Below, piece by piece: positions 17,306 through 28,460 of a stretch of DNA of 64,000 nucleotides. The first letter of the stretch is position 1. Each line of letters opens with the position of its first letter. The DNA lies in NCBI GenBank assembly GCA_947172415.1, contig OX359200.1, positions 2,544,501-2,608,500 on the forward strand, in the 5' to 3' direction. The position numbers and the translations under genes are program-made. The notes under the pieces were generated by a model that searched no databases, was not told the origin of the DNA, and saw only the letters and a list, made by a program, of their open reading frames with translations. This DNA is from Chondrosia reniformis. Taxonomy: Eukaryota > Porifera > Demospongiae > Chondrillida > Chondrillidae.

Positions 17306-18341
17306 TCAAAAAATGGCGGACGTTTGGCTAGCTTTCGTTTTCTAGCTTAAAATTAGCTTTCTCTTCCTTAGCGTAGAACATTGAATGTACGAAATGGACT
17401 TAAAAACCACCCTTACTAATACTATATAACATAAAGCTTGCGCAAAAACTTTTTCTACAAGGTAAGGCCTTGAAATTGACGGCATAAAAACGTTTACCAG
17501 AATCGAAACCAGATATAGCAGTGGGACACCACCTTTTGGTTTAGAAGAGGCTTGCCAGCTGGAGTTTGTCTGTTTGACCGTTGTGTTTTGAACTGTGGCC
17601 TTTAATCACGTTCTTAAGGGGCTAATTAAGACGACATAAGAAAAGTGTGCAGGTGAGTGTTTTTAGGAAAATTGGGATTACTTCGGCCGGACAAGGACTT
17701 ATGGCATAGAGAGGTTCTCTATGTGAGTTGAAGAAGCTTTGGATGTGCCTTAAGTTAGCCTGCTTCCTATAATAAACTTTACGCTTTAACTAAATCGTTT
17801 ACAAGGACTTATTGCATAGAGTTTATAAACGATGTTGTCTACTTGAGTTGAAGACGAACCCTGACGTCTAGGTAGCATACTTTTTGTCTTGAAAAAGCAC
17901 TCTCCTTGCTGTAAGAAGGTAAAGGAAACCTTTCTTTCAGGTTAGGCTGTCATTTTAGAGCCCACTTTACCTTACTTTTGCCACATGTGTACTTAGATTT
18001 TAAATTAATTAAATTCGGCTGGACAAGGACTTATTGCATAGAGATGTTCTCTACGTGAGTTGAATTGAATGTGCCCTAAGTTAGCCAGCAGTCCTGTAAA
18101 AAACTTTACGCTTTACCTTAATCGTTTACAAAGACTTATTACATTGAGTTTATAAGGGATGTTGTCTACGTGAATTGAAGACGAACCCTGACGCCTAGGT
18201 AACAGACTTTCTTGTCTTGAAAAAGCACTCGCCTTGCTGTAAGAAAGTAAAGGAAACCTTTGTTTCAAGTTAGGCTGTCATTTCAGAGCCCACTTTACCT
18301 TACTTTTGCCACATGTGTACTTAAGATTTTAAATTAATTAT
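17306..18341 (+). repeat. Dispersed repeat X followed by tandem repeat Y
   Basis: X (17306-17640) starts with CAAAAAATGGCGGAC and recurs at about 50535-50860 (plus) and 6490-6690 (minus). It runs without a break into Y, two tandem units of about 330 bp (17683-18012 and 18013-18341), each starting CGGC.GGACAAGGACTTATTG. Within each unit the phrase ACAAGGACTTATTGCATAGAG occurs twice. Further Y copies are at 28149-28460 and 56150-56325. No coding capacity is seen. Confidence 0.75.
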
Positions 18342-19031
18342 AGTAATGTATCAGAATTCGGCCACATCAGAATTCGGACGCCTTGTTCTCAGCAAGTATT
18401 AAAGCTATGAGCCTCAATGGATAATAAATTGTAGCCACTTTTGAGAGAGACCAGCAGGCAGAGTAAGAGGGGGCTGCGCCTTGGCTTCATCGAACACGAG
18501 CTGTTTAAGTGGGGTGGCCGAATATAAGCAAAGTTCAGATGGTTTAATTAGAATTCGGACAAAAGCCTCTAGCGCCTTCGGTTTTGGACTGACATACTTG
18601 AATACTTCACCACTGGTAGCTCTAGCCTTCATTTTAGATGTTGCCAGATTTCATCATGAAATGTTTAACTTTCCGAAAATGTGAGCTCGATAACCAAACC
18701 TAACAACATATAATCAGAATTTGGACTACAGCTTTTTATACGTAGTTTCAACAGAACAACAGAATACTTCACAGCTGGTAGCTCTATGCTTCCTCTACAA
18801 ATTTCTTAACTTTCAAAGCATAACGTTTAAGACCAAGGAAATGCGACGTTAAAAATCAAGTCATATGCGAATAAATCAAGAGTTGTACGACAAGTCACGT
18901 GCGTGCTTTGATTCTGGTGGGATTATAGTTCTGCTTTGGGTCCAGGATCCTCAATTTGCAGAGTAACAGGATGCGATAAGTACAACTGGTAAAAGAGTCT
19001 GGGAGCAATTCAAGGTAATTACTATAGCTTC
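18342..19031. repeat. Left long terminal inverted repeat
   Basis: About 690 bp that matches, reversed, 27903-28148 and then 24927-25260. Shared landmarks are CAGAATTCGGCCACATCAG, GCCTCTAGCGCCTTC, AACCAAACCTAACAACATA, AGGATCCTCAATTTGCAG and GAGCAATTCAAGGTAAT. Short internal direct repeats (AATACTTCAC..CTGGTAGCTCTA at 18603 and 18769) lie in the arm. About 100 bp present here (18590-18690) has no counterpart in the right arm. Confidence 0.8.
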
Positions 19032-19757
19032 AGATCATGCAGTCACGGATTGTGTTAGCTATGCCTTGTTTTCTCCTTCTTGGGAGTGTGAGTGATTTGT
19101 GATCGTAGCTACAACATCAAGGCTTCTATATAAGCAATTTTAGCATTTGCATTACAAGAGGTAGACATATATAAAATAACATACAGTACTCAAATCAATT
19201 GGTTTGCAAGAAAAGAAAAAATAGGTACATGCAGATAATAAGCCAGTGTGATGCTAGGTAAGTACATGCAGATAAAAAGCCAGTGTGATGCTATTCAGAT
19301 TGGGAAAAAATATAAAATTAAAGTAGGCTAAGCACAAAAAAGAGTAGATCCAGATCATATTGTAACCAAGTGGGTAGCAAATGGGAGAGTCGAAATATAT
19401 AGCTGCTGTAAGAGATAGGTGGGAATAACATCCCCACAAAGGAGGCATTGTACATATGGCCTTTGCCTTCTCTCTTTGTGGTCCTAGAAGTCCTTGGCCA
19501 AGTCCATAACTTCTGAGTCCATGAAGAGACATGCAGAGTTTTGTGGATGATTTTTGAAGAAAATGTTCAATTCTGTAAGTTTGAATAGGGCTGGTGGTGG
19601 TCATGATGACGACTGCCAGGTGCATGGTTCGCATGCATGGCAGAAGTTGTAAATAGAATTGCTTGTTCGCAGTGAAGCATATTGAAATATAATGAATACA
19701 CACATAATGGACAGTATGTTCAAACATACCGACTACATGCAGCTTTTCTCGGCTGAC

Positions 19758-20290
19758 CTGTACAGTGAAAACCAACTTCTCCACCTTCCCAATGGCTTTC
19801 TTACAAGCCTCTGTCAGCTGCTCCTGGCACAAGGAGTAGTTGGCTGATGATCTGACCATGTTGGTCACTTTGAACAGACCCTTTGTGGCATCGGCTGTCT
19901 CCTTTGCAGTTGCATAAATTCTGTCCTTAATGGCCTAGTCCTATGACATATATGGAAGCAATCTCCTATATGAATGAGTTATGAGGGCTGAGGGGGAGCT
20001 GGCCACAGCGCCGTTGCTTGTGCAATCTGCTCTGCAGCAGCATGGACTTCCTATCCACACAATGTCAGTAAGACACATATTAAAGCACATCCATCAAGAC
20101 ACACTGAGCTGAGCCCTATAAAATGGCTGCTGCATGCAGAATGTTTCGACTGACCTGTACAGTGAGAACCGACTTCTCCACCTACCCATGCAATGGCTTT
20201 AGTGCAAGCCTCTATCAGCTGCTCCTGGCACAAGGAGTATTCGGCTGATTATCCGACCTTGTTGGCCACTGTGAGATAGAAGCAAACTTC
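19758..20290 (-). pseudogene. Captured helical-bundle exons, talin-like, duplicated
   Basis: On the minus strand, 19925-19758 reads ATAKETADATKGLFKVTNMV, then YSLCQEQLTEACKKAIG and VEKLVFTVQ, ending at a GT (CAG|GTCAGC). About 20045-19975 reads EVHAAAEQIAQATAL. 20280-20150 is a diverged second copy of the first exon (AEYSLCQEQLIEACTKAIA), ending at the same junction, with a stop near its start. The pattern of Ala-rich amphipathic helices resembles talin/vinculin rod bundles. This is likely a host gene fragment carried by the transposon. The identity is by eye only. Confidence 0.4.
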
Positions 20291-20678
20291 TCTGCATGCA
20301 TCACATCTTTGTCCTTATAGCTAAGTGAGCAGTGGACCTAATGCCAAAAGAGCTCACTGTTACCTCACTGTGTGATGTCCTTCACTCAGGCCTGCCTATA
20401 CATGCCTGTACCTTGCTCTTGCTAACATTGCATCCTTCAGTACTGCTTTCATAGTGGGGGCTGCACTATATTAAAGGGTCACTGGAGAAGTAACTGGTGC
20501 CTTAAACAGTACAGTATCTGTTGTTGTCAAAGCATGAAGCAGGTTTGCCCATGCTATATAAAGTATAATTACTTCAGACAGCTAATTTATAGACTTAAAA
20601 TGTGTAGGGGTAATGTAAAGGCTAAAAATAAATTATGTAGTTACATTTCTTGATAGTTAGAAGAATTAACCTTCTGCC

Positions 20679-22436
20679 TCAAGCGTTTTTAGCCATAAAC
20701 TTAGGCAAAAACGCTTGGGGCTTGCTCTGTGGCACTTGAGGGAGACTTCCTCCTATGCAGTCATTGCAAAACCATTGCAGTTGCTGAAGCTGCTTATCTG
20801 TCAGGTCGTTAAGGCCTACACATGATTGATGATACCATCGTGCACACCCATCACATTCAATCATGTCGTCATAGCCTTCAGGCATAGTGCAGTAGCAGTA
20901 AAACTGCAATTCCTTTGAAATGCTTTGAACTGGTCTAAGTCTCTAATTTACTCTGTGTACTTGTGGAAATCTTGCCAGTATTCCCTGCTCAAAACAATCT
21001 ACTAAGTGACTGCTCATCTTGGGTTGATCATAAGTCACTAATGCTGGATCTTTCCCGAAACACACTTCAGTCGCATATGCAACAGCAAACAGGCCACAGT
21101 CGTGTGTACCTTGCTGTTGCTGGACAGCCAGCTTCCTAATTGTTAGGCTATTCTCTTTTGCGCATGCAGGGCCATAAATTTGAGCAATTTGCAATTCTAC
21201 AGACCTCTCTAATGTGTCCTCTGTCCATAGGCTGTCCATTAGTAGTACTGTGGTGTTCTTTATCACTGCTGTGGATACCCAGTGCTTAGAATTTCCTTTA
21301 AAGATATTGGTGGAAACAAGGATAAGAATACTGTACTCACAACCAATGAACAAACAGTTATACTCTTAACCGATTAACCACCGCTTCCGGCAGGGGCACG
21401 TGACCGGTAACTGCTGTAAGCTTTTGCGGGAAATATACACGTGGAAGAAATGTTTAACCCTGTGCCTTTAACCGGTTGTAGTCTCGAAGTGAGACAATTT
21501 TTGTATAGACAAATTTCATTTTTCGAAGAGATAAAAGAAAAAAGAAATCGACAATCATTGCAAACGGTAAGCGCTCATAATTCTTTCATGATAAGAAAAG
21601 TAAGTATTGATGGACTTTAATAATATTCTTCTCCCGAAGTGAAAGGTCAGCATACGCTTTACTGTACCTGACCTTGTCATTTTTGCCACTGCACTAATAA
21701 TAGTAGACATGAATGGGCATATGTTTAAGTCCATCGCTGAGGTAATTTCGAAGAAAGACAGCCTAGAATAATAAATGGTTGCTATATATGAAAAGGTGCC
21801 CTAATGGTGAATTTAAATCATCGGAAAACCTCTCGCTTTAGTAAGCGCACTTTTCCTACATATAACAGCCCACTTGTCTATACATTATAACAAGCCTATT
21901 TATATTTACTTGTAGTTGTAATTATTTCTGTCTATATATCAAAGCGAAACAATGATTAGGAAGCTTACCAAAGCGTCAAAAGCATCTATAATTCAATGAG
22001 ACAGCAGTTAGAAATTTCTCCAAAGACGAAGCAGTCGCTACAAATCTGAATTTAGCAGCTGACTATTTGTTTACTTTCATTTATAACTCGCGCATATCAG
22101 AAATTACATTGGTAATTGATGTCAGCATATCTCTGTATTTTCTGTCGCATACAGGCGACAGAGGCGGTTAATGGGTTAAACTACTCAAGACACTATCCCT
22201 TTAAAATGTGATTATAGTTCAATTATCCTGCTTTAACTTGGAAAAGGCACATTCAAGTTACTTACCAATGTGTAGTATCTGCACAGCAACATCACCCTTC
22301 TTTAGGGGCACAGCACTAAAGGATAGCAATTCACCAAGTGTGGTGTCTTGAAACCCATACCACTGAGGAAACTGTTTCTGCAAAATGATCTGAGCGGCAT
22401 TCATTATTGTCTTCTCACCACCATCTTTGTTTGGCA
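20679..22436 (-). pseudogene. Ulp1-type protease with C-terminal PHD finger
   Basis: Ulp1 (C48) proteases remove SUMO-like modifiers; a PHD finger reads histone tails. A minus-strand exon at about 22436-22266 reads AAQIILQKQFPQWYGFQ...GDVAVQILHIG and ends in a consensus donor (G|GTAAGT). After an intron, 21353-20943 carries KHWVSTAVI (catalytic His), VLLMDSLW (Asp) and QQQGTHDCGLFAVAYA (Gln and catalytic Cys). In the same frame, after one in-frame TAG (20943-20945), comes a PHD finger: FYCYC...MIECDGCARWYHQSCVG...WFCNDC, with all Cys/His ligands. Apart from that stop the fusion is open to 20679. It is probably a second product of the transposon. The N-terminal exons are not resolved. Confidence 0.7.
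21366..22179. mobile_element. piggyBac-type MITE with TTAA duplication
   Basis: Flanked by TTAA at 21366-21369 and 22176-22179. The left end reads CCGATTAACCACCGCTTCCG and the right end, reverse-complemented, CCCATTAACCGCCTCTGTCG. A TTAA target and CC-starting inverted repeats are the piggyBac pattern. It fills the intron between the two Ulp1 exons and contains no transposase. Confidence 0.75.
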
Positions 22437-23087
22437 GTTATTGGTGTACAACAGTCATCATCAACTATGATGACTATGTAGGATATATATACAAAAAGGA
22501 AAAGGAAAGCGTAAATAAATAGCTAGTTTCTGAGATAACTCAATAGAAAATCAGCTCCAGTTATATAGTTCAGAACTTGAGACACTGTACATAAATCTGT
22601 AAGGAAACCCTGACATGCTCATATTAACTTTCTATAAAAGCTTTCTTCCTCGTGCACGCTCTTTGCTACCCAAATCTTTTTTAGCTCTCTGGTCACCTGA
22701 ATGAAATTGAATTTAAGAGGTAACTTGCACAATAATAATTATTAATGACTTGCTTGATCACACATGCATGGGTCTCTTCTCTTTTATCTCTGCTTCTCTC
22801 TGGTTCACACTACCACATGTACTTTCTTCTGACACTTCTGCACAGTGTACAGACACATATTCATCACAGCAGAATGTACAACTCCTAAACTAATTGTTCC
22901 ATGTATATGTTATGCCATTAGCAAGGCAATAGCATAATTTTAATTGACAACTCTCACAAGATAAAGAGGTTACCGCATGATCACTGGCATGGACGCATAA
23001 TGCACTCACTTTTCAATCTTGCCAATTCCTTTTCTCTTGCCTTCTTTGCTCTCAGCTTCTGTTTCTCTTCCTGCTTCTTTCCCTCAT

Positions 23088-24647
23088 CTACTTTGCATCT
23101 TGCTTCAGCTGAAGTAGTTTTAGGCTTTCCCGACTAGTCAAGACCTGGCCTGCAACTTTGCCACCCTTTGCAGGCATGCAAGGGGGTGGTTTCACTACGA
23201 AATCACTGAAAGATGTTTTCTGTCTAAGTGGGACACGTTCTGCCACCTGTACGTCTGGAGAGGACACAGGTGGTGTAGAAGGTCCATCATGCTGTGGTAA
23301 TGCCTCACGATCTGATGGACGCTTACCCCTAGATGGGCTGTAGGGTGGGATATAAGCCAAGCCACTGCTTTTCACAAGCTTCATAGGGTCAAACTTGGTA
23401 GAAGTACACTTAGGCTCATCTGCTACTGCAGATCTCTGCCCGTCAAAAGGATAAATTCCAGTAACTCTATAGCTTGAAATAATGTTAGGCAAGGTCATTG
23501 CTTTATACCATGCCTCAGCAAACAGCCTACAAAAATCAAATTTGGTAATCAATTTCGCAGGGTTTACCATTGTAAATTTACGGCATCTCTCCCGCCATGC
23601 ACTCTTCAGTGGAGAGAAACACCCCCTGTCTAAAGGTTGTGTAACAGGTGTTGTGTTAAGGGGGAGAACAAACATTATCACTTGCTTCTCTGCAGCTAGC
23701 GTAATGGTGGCTGGGGAGTAGTGAGAGGAATGGCCATCCATTAGAAGTATAATTGTCCTTTCACAAGTTGCATATTGCAGAAAGTGACCAGTGAACCACT
23801 GATGGAACAACTCCTGTGTCATCCACCCATTTGCTGAAATGCCATACAGCGTGCCGGGAACTTCCCCTTCAGCAAACCTAATGTTAAAACTCTTCTGATT
23901 GAGTACAACAAAGGGCGGCATAGCTGTACCTGCTGCATTTGAACAGGCCAGCACGGTGTACTGCTCTTTAGCCCCACTTGTCAAATAGCTGGTGTGTTTT
24001 GAATATACTTGACCCACTACTTAATGGCAAGTGGGATTAATTAGGAGCCCAGTTTCATTGCAGTTGTAGATGGCTCCTGGTTTGTCTAGCATACCATTAG
24101 CCTCTAAACAGTCATGTGGAATATCAAAGTAACTGTCTAGGACTTCTTTGGTAGCAGCCTTTGCTCGACAATGAGACAAGGGGATGGCAGAGTTAAGTGT
24201 CACATTTGGGTGGCATTCAGAAAAACGCTGCCACCAGCCAGGTATAACAACACGGTCGATGCCCTTAGAATCCACGATCTCTTGTACAATTGCTATTACT
24301 TGTTTCTTTGTACACGGAAAGCCAATTTGTGCCACTTGGAAAAGGAAACTGACAAGCTCACCCTCTTCTTCTCCTGTTAAGTATGAACATCCTGGTCTAC
24401 TCCCTAGTGCACTCTTCCCCAAGTAATAGTCACTGAGTGTTGCCCTGGGGATGCCATACATGATTGATGCAGCTCTCAGTGATGTACGTCCATGCACATC
24501 TGCAAGGGCATGCTCCATGCTCTCACCTGTCCATGTCTTATACATACCTCGGTCAGCTTTGATAGCAGGTAACAGAGAATGCTGCAGTTGATCATGTTTC
24601 CTTTTTGCTCTTATCACCCTGCTCGCAAGAGCTGGGTGGGGAAACAT
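23088..24647 (-). pseudogene. pogo/jerky-like transposase (DDE_1), inactivated
   Basis: Cuts and pastes the element via a DDD catalytic site. The N-terminal half (24647-24021) has a helix-turn-helix of the psq/CENP-B type (SLRAASIMYGIPRATLSDYY), then PGCSYLTGEEEGELVSFLFQ, PGWWQRFSECHPNVTLNSAI and YNCNETGLLINP. The second half (24017-23088) is in the same frame and carries HTSYLTSGAKEQYTVLACSN, ILLMDGHSSHYS and TQPLDRGCFSPLK. One in-frame TAA (24021-24023) separates them. The first catalytic Asp of the family's DETG motif is Asn here (CNETG); the other two (MDGH, PLDRG) are present. A basic Lys/Glu-rich tail in the next frame after 23088 suggests a late frameshift. The transposase is therefore dead. 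Confidence 0.85.
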
Positions 24648-24926
24648 CTACAATAGGCACAAATATGAAGTGTAGCTGAATAAAATTCTTTTATACAGCC
24701 CATTAACTATTTCTTGCTAACACTCATATTGGTACTGAAGAATGTGAAGTTAGAGTCCATTAAATTTTGTTTCTCACCTATACATATCATAAATCTGGTA
24801 CTGTGCAACCATTACTAGCAATAGCAAGCTTCCTAACTAGCCAATAGCTATAGCTTCATCTAGTCGTTCTTTTGAAGTTAATAGCTAGAATGGATGGTTC
24901 AATACAAACCATGTATTGCTTAATTT

Positions 24927-25260
24927 AAGCTATAGTGCATTACCTTGAATTGCTCTCAGACTCTGCTTACACCGGTTGTACTTATGATCGGATCCTGTTA
25001 CACTGCAAATTGAGGATCCTGGCCCCCACAGTAGCACTACCAATCCCGCCAGAACAAGACCGCGCACGTGACTTGATTATGTCACATTTTGTGTTTCTTA
25101 AACATTATATATTGAAAGTTAAGAAATTTGTAGAAGATAGAGCTACCAGTTGTGAAGTATTCATGTGTGTCAGTCGAAAACTACTTTTGAAAATGGCTTT
25201 CTGTTGAAACTATGTATAGTCCGAATTCTGATTATATGTTGTTAGGTTTGGTTATCAAGC
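24927..25260. repeat. Right long terminal inverted repeat, inner part
   Basis: Reverse complement of 18691-19031. It ends at the Merlin boundary, after GGTTTGGTTATCAAGC. The outer part of the same arm resumes at 27903. Confidence 0.8.
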
Positions 25261-25709
25261 GGATCAGCCGTAATATACAGACACGGCGTCCATTTGCAAT
25301 TATGATGTAACGAATCACTTATGCTTCATATGACGACTCCTTTCCAAGTGTCCGTGGGCGCTTATCTAAATCCAGCGATGAAGTTGATTGATGCTGATCA
25401 ATCAATCGTCTGTGGCCGTTTTACACTTATTTCACTCCTAGTTTCACCCGTAAGTTCCCTTGCCCCTAGCCCATCTGTTATTACGTTAGTACTTGCGTTT
25501 CTTTTTAAAAGCTTTGGCGTGTGTCTAAATACTTTTTAAGGCTCAACGCTTTTAAGGTATTTCATTGTTGTTTGTAAACAAGGATAACCTTAATTTATAG
25601 AAATGTTTATAGTTTAACTGTGCCTGTTGTAAGTTGTTAAGTTAAGCAACACCTAAGTTGTTGATGTAGCAAATGAATGCTCGTTATGAATTAGGGTTTG
25701 GTTTAGATA

Positions 25710-25732
25710 GTTGGGTTAGGGTTAGGGTTAGC
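25710..25732. repeat. Short telomere-like TTAGGG run
   Basis: Three consecutive GTTAGG-type hexamers (GGGTTAGGGTTAGGGTTAG), with looser TTAGGG-like pieces at 25693 and 25905. It lies inside the Merlin-like element, upstream of the transposase start. Probably simple sequence rather than a telomere end. Confidence 0.5.
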
Positions 25733-26314
25733 AATGTATGGTGAGATATAGGGCAAATTTTTAAAAAAAATCATTTTTTATAAAACTCAATGGTTATACT
25801 TTATGGATGTCTGTGAGTGTTAATACCAAGTTAAAGCTTCATATCTCTCCATTTTCTAGAGTTACAGCACCAAAATTATTGTATATTGTACTTTAACTTA
25901 GGGTTAAGGTTAGGATTTTGATTTTAGTTACTAATTACCTTTGTTTCTTTCTACAGATAGAAGAAGAAAGAGAAGAGACAGCAAAATAACCTATTTAGTA
26001 TTCATTTTTGTAAAACTAAGATAGTAATAATAATATTAATTAACATTTAATTGCCAAATTGTGGCTACTTTTAGTTACGAAGCTGTGAATGATGTAATCC
26101 AACTTGCGTAACCACCATGTACCGGTATATACGGGTATCACGCAATTGTGGGTACGAGCTGTAATTAAGTTCATAAGTGTGCATAAACATTACCAGCGAC
26201 CTTTTCCAAGATTTTTTGTGCATTTAATAGAATTCATGTGTCTAATTAAATTCACTCATTGTCTAATTAAATTCATTCGCAATATTTAGGCGTTTTTTAC
26301 AGCGGTTTTAAAAA

Positions 26315-27349
26315 ATGTCATTTTTGGAAATTGGGAAGGTTACTTTTGGACCACAAGATGATCTACTTGATTGGTTTCAATCAAAAGGGCTGCTGGCAAG
26401 CAGCAGGACCTGTTCCTGTGGCACAGCTATGACCATGTTTCCACGCCAAAATATCTCGGACAAATTCAGGTACATTTAAAATTAATGAAACTTATGTACA
26501 ATAAAAATAGGATAAAAATAATTATAATTATGTAATTATCACATAGATGGAGGTGTCCTGCATGTCACAAGTGTGCCACACTCAGGGAGGGGAGCTGCTT
26601 CAGTAAATCTAAGCTCACACTACAGAAGTGGCTCCTCCTCATGCACTGGTGGGCCTTCGAAATAGCTGTGACAACTGCTGCTGCCCAAATAGAGGTCACC
26701 GAGAACACGAATGGAATGTGCTCCACCAAGCTGTGTTCTCTGCAGATTCTCCTTGGAGGTCAAGGGGTGGTGGTGCAAATCGATGAGTTGCTATTTTTCC
26801 ACAAACCTAAGGTATATAAAATTACAAAGAAATGATGATTGAAAAAGAAATTAACATTTAAATTCAATTAACATTCGAAATGTACTTATGTATACACAGA
26901 ATCACAGGGGCAGACCTCTAAGGCAGGAACGATGGGTGTTTGGGTTATGTGACACTTCCTTCGACCCAGCCCTTGGGTACATGGAGCTGGTGCCTGACCG
27001 AAGGGCTGGTACTCTGCTGCCAATCATTCAAACTCACGTGAAGCCAGGCACCATCATCGCCTCTGATTAATGGAGGGTGTACAGTAATGTTGGGCAGCTA
27101 CCCAATGTAGTTGCACACAGAACTGTAAATCACAGCTTTAACTTCGTGGGTCCTACTGGGACCCACACGCAAAACATTGAAAGCTACTGGAATAGAGCAA
27201 AAATTATATTTAAAAATATGAGAGGGGTTTCGGAAGAACAACTGCCATCCTACCTGGACGAGTTCATGTGGCGGGAGAGGTATGGGGTATCAAAAAGGGA
27301 AGCGTTTCAAAACCTAATTGCACACATCAAACAACAATATCCTGTTTAG
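26315..27349 (+). pseudogene. Merlin/ISXO2-like transposase, spliced, one stop
   Basis: A DDE transposase of the IS1595/ISXO2 family. Three exons are read: 26315-26469 (AAATTCAG|GTACAT), 26547-26811 (ATAG|ATGG to AAG|GTATAT) and 26900-27349 (ACAG|AATC), with phases 2 and 0 preserved. A zinc ribbon is split by the first intron (CSCG ... RWRCPACHKC). The catalytic triad is present: VVQIDELLFF (D), GTIIASD (D) and THTQNIESYW (E). The middle has HRGRP and ERWVFGLCDTS, typical of the family. One in-frame TAA (27068-27070) follows the second Asp where a Gln codon is expected. A small deletion is likely near TENTNGMCSTK. Otherwise near-complete. Confidence 0.85.
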
Positions 27350-27902
27350 ATACTTCATCTTTTACATTTACACTATTAATATCCGTTTTTGTAATCATAG
27401 ATAGTAATGATTGGATTGGAAAATACTAAATAAATCAAGGGTTTGTTTACAAACAAACAATGAGTAAACAAACACCAACAGTTGAGAATACATACTTAAT
27501 ATGACAACAAAAACGGGTGATCATATGCCAATCTTTAATTAAACTGGAATTATATTATAGCATTTAGTTGGGATTCCCTAAGAGGGCCAAATTACAGAAC
27601 GCCTGAACCATAGGCGCTCTGTAATTTTTCGGAAATTTTTTTAACGCAAAATCAGGGGAAGAACCATAACAAGGAAGAAAAATCATGGACACAGCCAACG
27701 ATCCCAACTAACAACTTACGGGCGCATCTGATTTTCGAAAGCGTAAGGTAATCCTTCCATCCATCAACCCCTATGAACAAGCAAAGAAGTAAAGGCAGTT
27801 AACTCCCAGCGAAACTTCGAAGCGCCTCTTGAAATGATGCGTGAGTGATTCGTTACGTCAAAATTACAAATGGACGCCGTGTCCATATATTACGGCTGAT
27901 CC

Positions 27903-28148
27903 AAAAACTGAAGGCGCTAGAGGCTTTCGTCCGAATTCTGATTAAACCATCTGAACTTTGCTTATATTCGGCCACCCCACTTAAACAGCTTGTGTTCGAT
28001 GAAGCCGAGGCGCAGCCCCCTCTTACTGTGCCTGCTGGTATCTCTCAAGAGTGGCTACAATTTTATATCCATTTGAGGCTCGTAGCTTTAATACTTGCTG
28101 AGAGCAGGGCATCTGAATTCTGATGTGGCCGAATTCTGATACATTACT
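27903..28148. repeat. Right long terminal inverted repeat, outer part
   Basis: Reverse complement of 18342-18590, from AAAAACTGAAGGCGCTAG to CATTACT. It contains a readable frame (27845-28123) only because the arm is a copy of the left one; no gene is implied. Confidence 0.8.
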
Positions 28149-28460
28149 CTAAATTCAGCGGGACAAGGACTTATTGCATAGAGATGTTCTCTACGTGAGT
28201 TGAATTGGATGTACCTTAAGTTAGCCAGCAGTCCTGTAATAAACTTTACGCTTTACCTAAATTGTTTACAAGGACTTATTGCATAGAGTTTGTAAGCGAT
28301 GTTGTCTACATGAATTGAAGATGAACCCTGATGCCTAGGTAGCATCGCGCTTGCTTTGCTGTAAGAAGGTAAAGGAAACCTTTGTTTCAAGTTAGGCTGT
28401 CATTTTAGAGCTCACTTTACCTTACTTTTGCCACATGTGTACTTAGATTTTAAATTCATT
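28149..28460 (+). repeat. Repeat Y, right remainder of the interrupted array
   Basis: Starts AAATTCAGCGGGACAAGGAC and follows the Y consensus to CCACATGTGTACTTAG. It continues the array cut by the long-TIR transposon. Confidence 0.75.

What the first reader, a model, noticed from the sequence alone, without database searches (positions are those of the whole stretch)
18342..28148. pogo-type transposon with its own Ulp1-PHD protein and 0.7-kb inverted repeats
Ordinary pogo/Tigger elements are about 2 to 3 kb, have short inverted repeats and encode one transposase. Here a pogo/jerky-like transposase, a Ulp1 protease joined in frame to a PHD finger and captured host-like exons lie on one strand between matching arms of about 690 bp. 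Ulp1 partners are known in other transposon groups (for example Zisupton-like and CACTA elements), but I do not know of a described long-TIR pogo group with a Ulp1-PHD fusion. De-SUMOylation plus histone reading would suit targeting or silencing escape. Seen: arms, motifs, orientation. Inferred: that they form one mobile unit.
Basis: partly seen in the sequence, partly recalled or inferred. Interest (0 to 1): 0.78.

Follow-up and report, generated by a model that had tools for sequence, protein, structure and literature searches.

The report
Pogo transposons carrying Ulp1-PHD tail
In a sponge genome, a group of "pogo" jumping genes has long mirror-image ends and carries, behind the jumping enzyme, a SUMO-type protease joined to a histone-reading domain, probably as one protein and possibly to resist the host's silencing of jumping genes.

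Summary
The window lies on chromosome 12 of the kidney sponge Chondrosia reniformis. At 18341-28149 is an old, decayed DNA transposon: TA at both ends, collinear arms of about 700 bp, a pogo transposase (HTH_psq + DDE_1), a Ulp1 protease and a PHD finger on one strand, and talin-like host exon fragments. This copy is broken: two in-frame stops, and N at the first catalytic D. It is the only full copy of its own family found; two related families, at four loci, have the same order inside 388-480-bp arms (91-99% identical). In the transposase tree 12 of 13 loci of one clade carry Ulp1, against 0 of 19 of the sister clade. In one copy seven introns, all phase 1, let transposase, linkers, Ulp1 and PHD read as one polypeptide, except for one stop; a divergent relative has them in one open frame. 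Ulp1-PHD also sits beside Gypsy-type integrase and macro-domain frames. Long-arm pogo elements and Ulp1-PHD tails (Ginger1) are each known; my searches did not find the combination. De-SUMOylation against silencing is inference.

The parts
18341..19056 (.). left long terminal inverted repeat (TA at 18339-18340)
27903..28149 (.). right arm, outer part (TA at 28150-28151)
24901..25260 (.). right arm, inner part, separated from the outer part by the Merlin-type insertion
25261..27902 (+). nested Merlin/IS1595-type element with 98-bp inverted ends (81%); transposase remnants 26855-27346; no target duplication seen
23088..24647 (-). pogo transposase exon (HTH_psq, DDE_1); in-frame stop at 24021-24023; first catalytic D is N
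23004..23009 (-). GTGAGT, predicted splice donor (phase 1) at the end of the transposase exon; a frame change lies between it and the DDE frame
22264..22425 (-). predicted exon with the N-terminal part of Ulp1, phase 1 at both ends (weak acceptor)
20946..21296 (-). Ulp1 (Peptidase_C48) catalytic exon; H, D, Q and C present
20679..20942 (-). PHD finger in the same frame as Ulp1, after one stop (20943-20945)
19758..19934 (-). talin-like host exon fragment (captured)
20183..20275 (-). second, partial talin-like fragment

Best explanation
It is a decayed member of a sponge lineage of pogo-superfamily cut-and-paste transposons with long terminal inverted repeats. The transposase gene of this lineage ends in a C-terminal cassette: a linker (in L070 encoded by repeated phase-1 exons), a Ulp1-type protease, and a PHD finger most like H3K4me3 readers. 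SHOWN by sequence: arms, TA at both ends, shared TA-GAGTAA ends in related families, order and strand, catalytic residues kept in other copies, clade-wide presence of Ulp1, and a reading frame that can run from transposase to PHD through seven introns (one stop in that copy). INFERRED: that the whole is translated as one polypeptide; that the protease removes SUMO (or a similar modifier) from chromatin or repair proteins at the element or the target; and that the PHD finger brings the complex to H3K4me3-marked active chromatin. The likeliest benefit is escape from SUMO-dependent silencing, compare the Ulp1-carrying VANDAL/KIU elements of plants; help with repair after excision is the main alternative.
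For: Four loci in two families (L070/L071 and L072/L073) with transposase, Ulp1 and PHD inside 388-480-bp arms of 91-99% identity. TA ends and a common terminal motif; the outer 35-42 bp of the window's arms are 81-86% identical to those of L072/L073. 16 of 66 Ulp1 places lie within 6 kb of a matching transposase against a mean of 0.9 (maximum 7) in 2000 rotations; 10 of 66 on the same strand and downstream against 0.22 (maximum 3). Transposase tree of 35 loci: clade A 12 of 13 with Ulp1 (support 0.964), sister clade B 0 of 19 (support 0.999). Splice phases all 1 in L070; phase-1 position before the Ulp1 catalytic exon also in window, L071, L073 and L069. Single-frame DDE_1 + C48 + PHD in L057. 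H, D, Q and C kept in nearly all loci where the stretch is present. Structure model pLDDT 81 matching SENP5, SENP1, Ulp1 and the PHF2 PHD finger. PHD sequence nearest to SHORT LIFE/EBS, CXXC1, PHF2, PHF8, BPTF, ING.
Against: No transcript evidence. L070 has a stop in exon 7 and L071 a shortened transposase exon, so I held no copy with every exon open. The window family has no second full copy: the other loci with its arm that I read are arm-only, and L069 is an L072-family element with a window-type arm at one end. Close copies show transposase dN/dS of 0.42-1.07 and Ulp1 0.6-1.4 (two pairs 3.3), as decaying copies do. Transposase and Ulp1 distances between five families correlate only weakly (r 0.43, 10 pairs). 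No empty site was compared, so TA as target duplication is by analogy with pogo. Modifier cleavage and H3K4me3 binding are by homology only; some fold matches act on ubiquitin or NEDD8. The window copy itself is dead by sequence.
Confidence: 0.64

Rival explanations
1. Ulp1-PHD is a second, separately expressed gene of the element (an accessory protein like VANC/KIU of plant VANDALs), not a tail of the transposase.
For: In the long-arm families the two lie in separate open frames about 0.7 to 1.7 kb apart. At four places (C1, C9, C12: L050, L048, L044; and a short hit on C11) a transposase fragment and Ulp1 lie in opposite orientation.
Against: Seven consecutive phase-1 introns in L070, the same phase at the homologous junction in window, L069, L071 and L073, a single open frame in L057. 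In L044/L048/L050 other transposase pieces lie on the Ulp1 strand, and the three are closely related, so the inversion looks like one later rearrangement.
Confidence: 0.25
2. The window segment is a composite: arm-only elements of one family flanking an unrelated stretch with a transposase gene of another.
For: This copy holds host exon fragments and a nested Merlin-type element; arm-only copies are common; no second full copy of this family was found, and L069 shows that a window-type arm can sit at the end of another family's element.
Against: Same order within matching arms at four other loci; both window arms run collinearly for about 700 bp, deeper than the terminal stretch, with TA on both sides; the arm tips resemble those of L072/L073, whose transposases are sisters of the window's.
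Confidence: 0.06
3. Ulp1-PHD serves DNA repair or regulation of the transposase itself (removing SUMO from repair factors or from the transposase), not escape from silencing.
For: Proposed for Ginger1 in its description (passage seen).
Against: No test here separates it from escape from silencing; a PHD of H3K4me3-reader type fits a chromatin role slightly better.
Confidence: 0.35

Closest known systems
pogo superfamily (Passer, Tigger, pogoR, Lemi, Mover, Fot), Gao et al. 2020 PMC7386202 (passages seen)
   Same: HTH_psq and DDE_1 domains, TA ends, DD35D spacing as in Passer and Fot; some unclassified insect members have 392-856-bp arms
   Different: Reported length 1.2-5.2 kb against 4.8-6.4 kb for L070-L072 (L073 is 3.6 kb); long arms reported only for insects; 'Ulp' and 'PHD' have 0 hits in the main text
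Ginger1 (PMC2836005, passages seen)
   Same: C-terminal Ulp1, in Ginger1-9_HM Ulp1 and PHD, on a DDE enzyme, several with introns
   Different: Gypsy-integrase type catalytic core; arms 44-270 bp in the table; CCGG/CCGT target duplications
VANDAL/KIU and other plant MULEs with Ulp1 (review PMC13317346, passages seen)
   Same: Transposon carrying a Ulp1 domain, linked there to relief of epigenetic silencing
   Different: MULE transposase, plants, no PHD mentioned in the passages seen
CryptonF/CryptonS with C48 peptidase (PMC3212892, passages seen)
   Same: Mobile element encoding a Ulp1-related peptidase
   Different: Tyrosine recombinase, no DDE enzyme; the C48 cases are from oomycetes in the passage on CryptonF/S
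Clade B long-arm pogo elements of the same sponge (such as L019-L021, L033)
   Same: Sister transposases, arms up to 405 bp, a PHD downstream of the transposase in 14 of 19
   Different: No Ulp1; PHD of another sequence type

Membership tests
pogo superfamily | DDE_1 catalytic domain with HTH_psq/CENP-B-type DNA-binding domain | tested here: met
pogo superfamily | TA target site duplication | tested here: met
   TA at both ends in window, L070, L071, L072, L073 and L004; no empty site was seen, so duplication is inferred
pogo superfamily | catalytic spacing in the reported range (DD29-59D; DD35D for Passer/Fot) | tested here: met
   D2-D3 spacing 35 in L070; N at the first D in the window copy
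pogo superfamily | placement in a pogo clade with reference transposases | not tested
   no reference pogo proteins were held; the tree has only loci of this genome
Ginger1 | Gypsy-type integrase core (rve, GPY/F) | tested here: not met
   the window transposase matches DDE_1, not rve
Ulp1/C48 protease | H-D-Q-C catalytic residues and CE-clan fold | tested here: met
   for L057 the anchored alignment misplaces the D, alignment A1 has it
Ulp1/C48 protease | cleavage of SUMO | not testable with these tools
   needs a protein assay
H3K4me3-type PHD finger | nearest solved relatives are H3K4me3 readers | tested here: met
Merlin (nested element) | IS1595/ISXO2-type transposase and 8-9-bp TSD (TSD length recalled) | tested here: inconclusive
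   domain met in one of two pieces at its cut-off, inverted ends found, no TSD

The most novel reading that the evidence does not exclude
Ulp1-PHD is an exchangeable counter-silencing cassette that has been passed among unrelated mobile-element enzymes within sponge genomes: pogo transposases of two distant kinds, Gypsy-type integrases and a macro-domain partner. In the window's lineage it replaced an older PHD tail, and it has been kept there through long diversification.
Probability: 0.35. Interest if true: 0.7.

Novelty: new variant of a known kind. Interest (0 to 1): 0.55.

Why it matters
Ulp1-type domains turn up in MULE, Ginger, Crypton and some retrotransposon families without an agreed role. 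A pogo lineage in which one clade has Ulp1 and its sister clade lacks it, in one small genome, gives a natural comparison of what the protease adds. Fusion to a histone-reader-like finger points to chromatin as the place of action, which is directly testable.

Tried and rejected
Composite of arm-only elements around an unrelated gene: disfavoured by the four related loci, not excluded for this one copy. My first reading of L069 as a second copy of the window's family was wrong: one search shows an L072-family element (92-98% identical over most of its length, right arm kept) whose left end is largely taken up by a window-type arm of about 550 bp; I raised the odds of the composite rival from 0.04 to 0.06 and lowered my own from 0.66 to 0.64 for that. 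A search of viral contigs with an intact transposase found no relative (16 pattern matches, none confirmed), so distribution beyond this sponge is untested; the tools hold no other animal genomes. Pfam gave no domain for the talin-like fragments themselves and the PDB only a weak talin match (E 0.24, behind chemotaxis proteins); identity rests on the host loci. dN/dS between close copies is uninformative. Distance correlation between transposase and Ulp1 is weak (r 0.43), so co-divergence is not shown beyond clade level. Rows dropped: the transposase tree used 35 of 37 loci taken up (L060 and L061 too short), out of at least 112 transposase places; the Ulp1 tree used 26 of 30 (L036, L052, L060, L061 left out). 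The labels 'pogo' for L068 and L045 in the Ulp1 tree are my assignment, from similarity or from a transposase 5-10 kb away. A short match of the Ulp1-PHD query downstream of clade B locus L013 (24 aa, E 0.002) lies in the PHD part and shows no Ulp1.
Full report
What and where. The window is G000:C12:2544501-2608500.

The element. Two arm stretches, 18338-18585 / 27904-28152 (93%) and 18685-19056 / 24901-25260 (69%), are inverted repeats. The right arm is split by 25261-27902, which has 98-bp inverted ends of its own (81%) and remnants of an IS1595-type (Merlin-like) transposase. With that stretch left out, both arms align collinearly for about 700 bp, with a gap of roughly 100 bp at the insertion point and no target duplication of the insert. 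TA flanks both outer ends, at 18339-18340 and 28150-28151; the ends read TAGTAATG on the left and GAGTAATG on the right. On the minus strand follow a transposase (HTH_psq 5e-6, DDE_1 1.2e-24), Ulp1 (C48, 5.8e-6) and PHD (6.3e-11), then two talin-like fragments. This copy is dead by sequence: a stop at 24021-24023, N in place of the first catalytic D, and a stop between Ulp1 and PHD.

Other copies of this family. The outer arm has 19 matches in the genome and the inner arm 16, the window's own included; both are lower bounds. Among six distinct arm loci read with 1.5-kb flanks (L002, L003/L004, L005 to L008), L004 has two full arms with almost nothing between (about 1.06 kb, TA on both sides), L006 one full arm and the outer 279 bp of a second, L005 and L008 one full arm and 58 to 140 bp of the inner part of a second, L002 a single arm, and L007 the outer 270 bp of one. 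These look like non-autonomous foldback derivatives and fragments. No second copy with the window's own genes was found: the next best transposase match is 55%, in L069, which is an L072-family element with a window-type arm at its left end.

Related families with the same plan. L070 and L071 (99% identical to each other) and L072 and L073 (93-96%) carry transposase, Ulp1 and PHD in the same order and strand between arms of 463 bp (98.7%), 480 bp (97.5%), 388 bp (98.5%) and 388 bp (91.2%). Their ends share TA-GAGTAA and AATTCGG-type subterminal repeats; the outer 35-42 bp of the window's arms are 81-86% identical to the ends of L072/L073. L069 has transposase, Ulp1 and PHD too, and an intact right arm of the L072 type.

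Is the association more than chance? Of 66 merged Ulp1 places, 16 lie within 6 kb of one of 112 merged transposase places; 2000 rotations per chromosome give a mean of 0.9 and a maximum of 7. For same strand with Ulp1 downstream it is 10 against a mean of 0.22 and a maximum of 3. Related copies are not independent, so the number says 'not random', not 'sixteen events'.

Clade pattern. A tree of 35 transposases of this genome, chosen mainly from the best-scoring places, has clade A, 13 loci, support 0.964, of which 12 carry Ulp1 by my labels: L035 reads N right after part of its DDE domain; L032 counts by its N-terminal Ulp1 exon and by Ulp1 hits 1.6 and 5.1 kb away; L036 has a truncated Ulp1 without PHD. 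Its sister clade B, 19 loci, support 0.999, shows no Ulp1 in any element, by the genome-wide Ulp1 search and by the DNA held, which for several reaches only 1.5 kb beyond the match; one (L014) has a Ulp1 hit 5.8 kb away on the other strand. In clade B 14 of 19 have a PHD downstream of the transposase in the DNA held, of a different sequence type, and long arms where both were in reach (L019-L021 389-390 bp at 97.9-99.7%, L033 405 bp at 90%; L016 and L023 run to the edge of the locus). Three more tips lie outside both clades: L037, L038 (PHD, no Ulp1) and L057. So long arms and a PHD are broader, and Ulp1 marks clade A and, separately, L057.

One protein or two? In L070 the transposase exon ends at a GT donor in phase 1. 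Five linker exons of 105-123 bp, one exon with the N-terminal part of Ulp1, and the Ulp1-PHD exon all enter in phase 1, and all but the last leave in phase 1. Seven matching phases by chance would be about 1 in 2000, somewhat more often because I chose the sites. The frame has one stop in exon 7, which L071 lacks; L071 in turn has a shortened transposase exon. The phase-1 position before the Ulp1 catalytic exon recurs in window, L069, L071 and L073; L072 has a changed acceptor, and its N-terminal Ulp1 exon was not found. L057, a divergent relative, has DDE_1, C48 and PHD in one uninterrupted 671-aa frame (PHD 22.2 bits, just under its 24-bit cut-off).

Domains. H, D, Q and C of Ulp1 are conserved in nearly all loci where the stretch is present. 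A model of the L057 Ulp1-PHD region (mean pLDDT 81.2, pTM 0.82) finds SENP5 and SENP1 first, with XopD, Ulp1, OtDUB and other CE-clan proteases (18 matches at E 0.001 or better, TM about 0.38-0.49), and the PHF2 and PHF8 PHD fingers for its C-terminus (E 0.024-0.026). CE-clan members that act on ubiquitin or NEDD8 are among the hits, so the modifier is not settled. The PHD by sequence is nearest to SHORT LIFE/EBS, CXXC1 and PHF2, then DIDO1, PHF8, TAF3, BPTF and ING fingers.

Selection. Between families synonymous sites are near saturation; pN/pS is 0.34-0.58 for the transposase, 0.39-0.68 for Ulp1 and 0.30-0.58 for the PHD part. All are below 1, which fits past constraint, on average stronger on the transposase. 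Between close copies dN/dS is 0.42-1.07 for the transposase and 0.6-1.4 for Ulp1, with two pairs at 3.3 where only one synonymous change exists and one pair undefined, as expected of decaying copies.

A travelling cassette? Of 23 Ulp1 loci examined, 20 have PHD behind Ulp1 (not L052, L060, L061); of seven more six do (not L054; in L064 the PHD lies about 0.6 kb further on). Five of those seven are L070-L073 and the window again. Partners besides pogo: a Gypsy-type integrase frame (L062, rve 1.5e-5, under its cut-off, in one frame with C48; L049, Tf2-type SH3 1.3e-5, under its cut-off; L055 and L056 by the likeness of their Ulp1 to that of L062; L047 by its likeness to L049) and a macro-domain frame (L046, 2e-31; L053 by likeness). 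In the Ulp1 tree of 26 loci the 12 modules that I labelled pogo fall in one group of 15 with L051, L065 and L066 at 0.883, apart from the labelled integrase ones; inside the group support is low (0.05-0.76 at the deep nodes) and pogo is not a clade of its own. By eye the frame upstream of L051 resembles that of L055. Exchange between element types is therefore possible but not proven.

Prior work. Gao et al. 2020 (PMC7386202, passages) give pogo lengths of 1.2-5.2 kb, TA target duplications, DD35D for Passer and Fot, and very long arms in some insect elements; 'Ulp' and 'PHD' do not occur in its main text. PMC7325037 (Tc1/mariner phylogeny 2020, passages) has no 'Ulp', 'PHD', 'sponge' or 'Porifera'. 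PMC2836005 (passages) lists Ginger1-9_HM with Ulp1 and PHD and suggests a role in repair. CryptonF/S carry C48 (PMC3212892, passages); Utopia-1_TSP and nematode NeSL have an N-terminal Ulp1-like protease (PMC4640811, passages). A 2026 review (PMC13317346, passages) describes Ulp1-carrying KIU genes of VANDAL elements linked to hypomethylation of related elements. SUMO promotes Argonaute-directed silencing in worms (PMC8131101, abstract and outline). Searches for pogo, Tigger or mariner with Ulp1 or PHD (5.39 million open-licence papers; I saw the listings and, in the papers named here, passages) showed no paper that describes a pogo transposon with Ulp1. Repbase and subscription papers were not searched.

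Verdict. A recurrent, clade-wide architecture in this genome: a new variant of pogo transposons. The mechanism (escape from SUMO-linked silencing at active chromatin) is a reasoned guess.

Noticed in passing
window 25261-27902: Merlin/IS1595-type element nested in the right arm, with about 100 bp of the arm missing at the insertion point and no target duplication; its transposase is in pieces.
   Followed up: partly
L057:1312-3324 (C6:2990656-2993979): One uninterrupted frame of at least 671 aa with DDE_1, Ulp1 and PHD, in a distant relative of the window transposase.
   Followed up: yes
L069:1240-1845 (C8): A window-type arm (about 550 bp) sits at the left end of an L072-family element, whose first 26 bp remain outside it: insertion or exchange of ends between families.
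   Followed up: partly
L046 and L053 (C2): Macro-domain frame upstream of a Ulp1-PHD frame; no transposase identified, the host element is unknown.
   Followed up: partly
L047, L049, L055, L056, L062: Ulp1-PHD beside or fused to Gypsy-type integrase remnants; Ginger1 DNA transposon or LTR element not resolved.
   Followed up: partly
L019, L020, L021 (C1, C8, C1): Three closely similar 3.4-kb long-arm pogo elements with PHD but no Ulp1, transposase frame open (587, 587 and 585 aa): probably recent movers.
   Followed up: partly
L070 exons 2-6: Five similar phase-1 linker exons (105-123 bp) between transposase and Ulp1, apparently exon duplications of unknown use.
   Followed up: no
window 25713-25731: Short run of GGGTTA repeats (telomere-like) inside the Merlin-type insert.
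   Followed up: no
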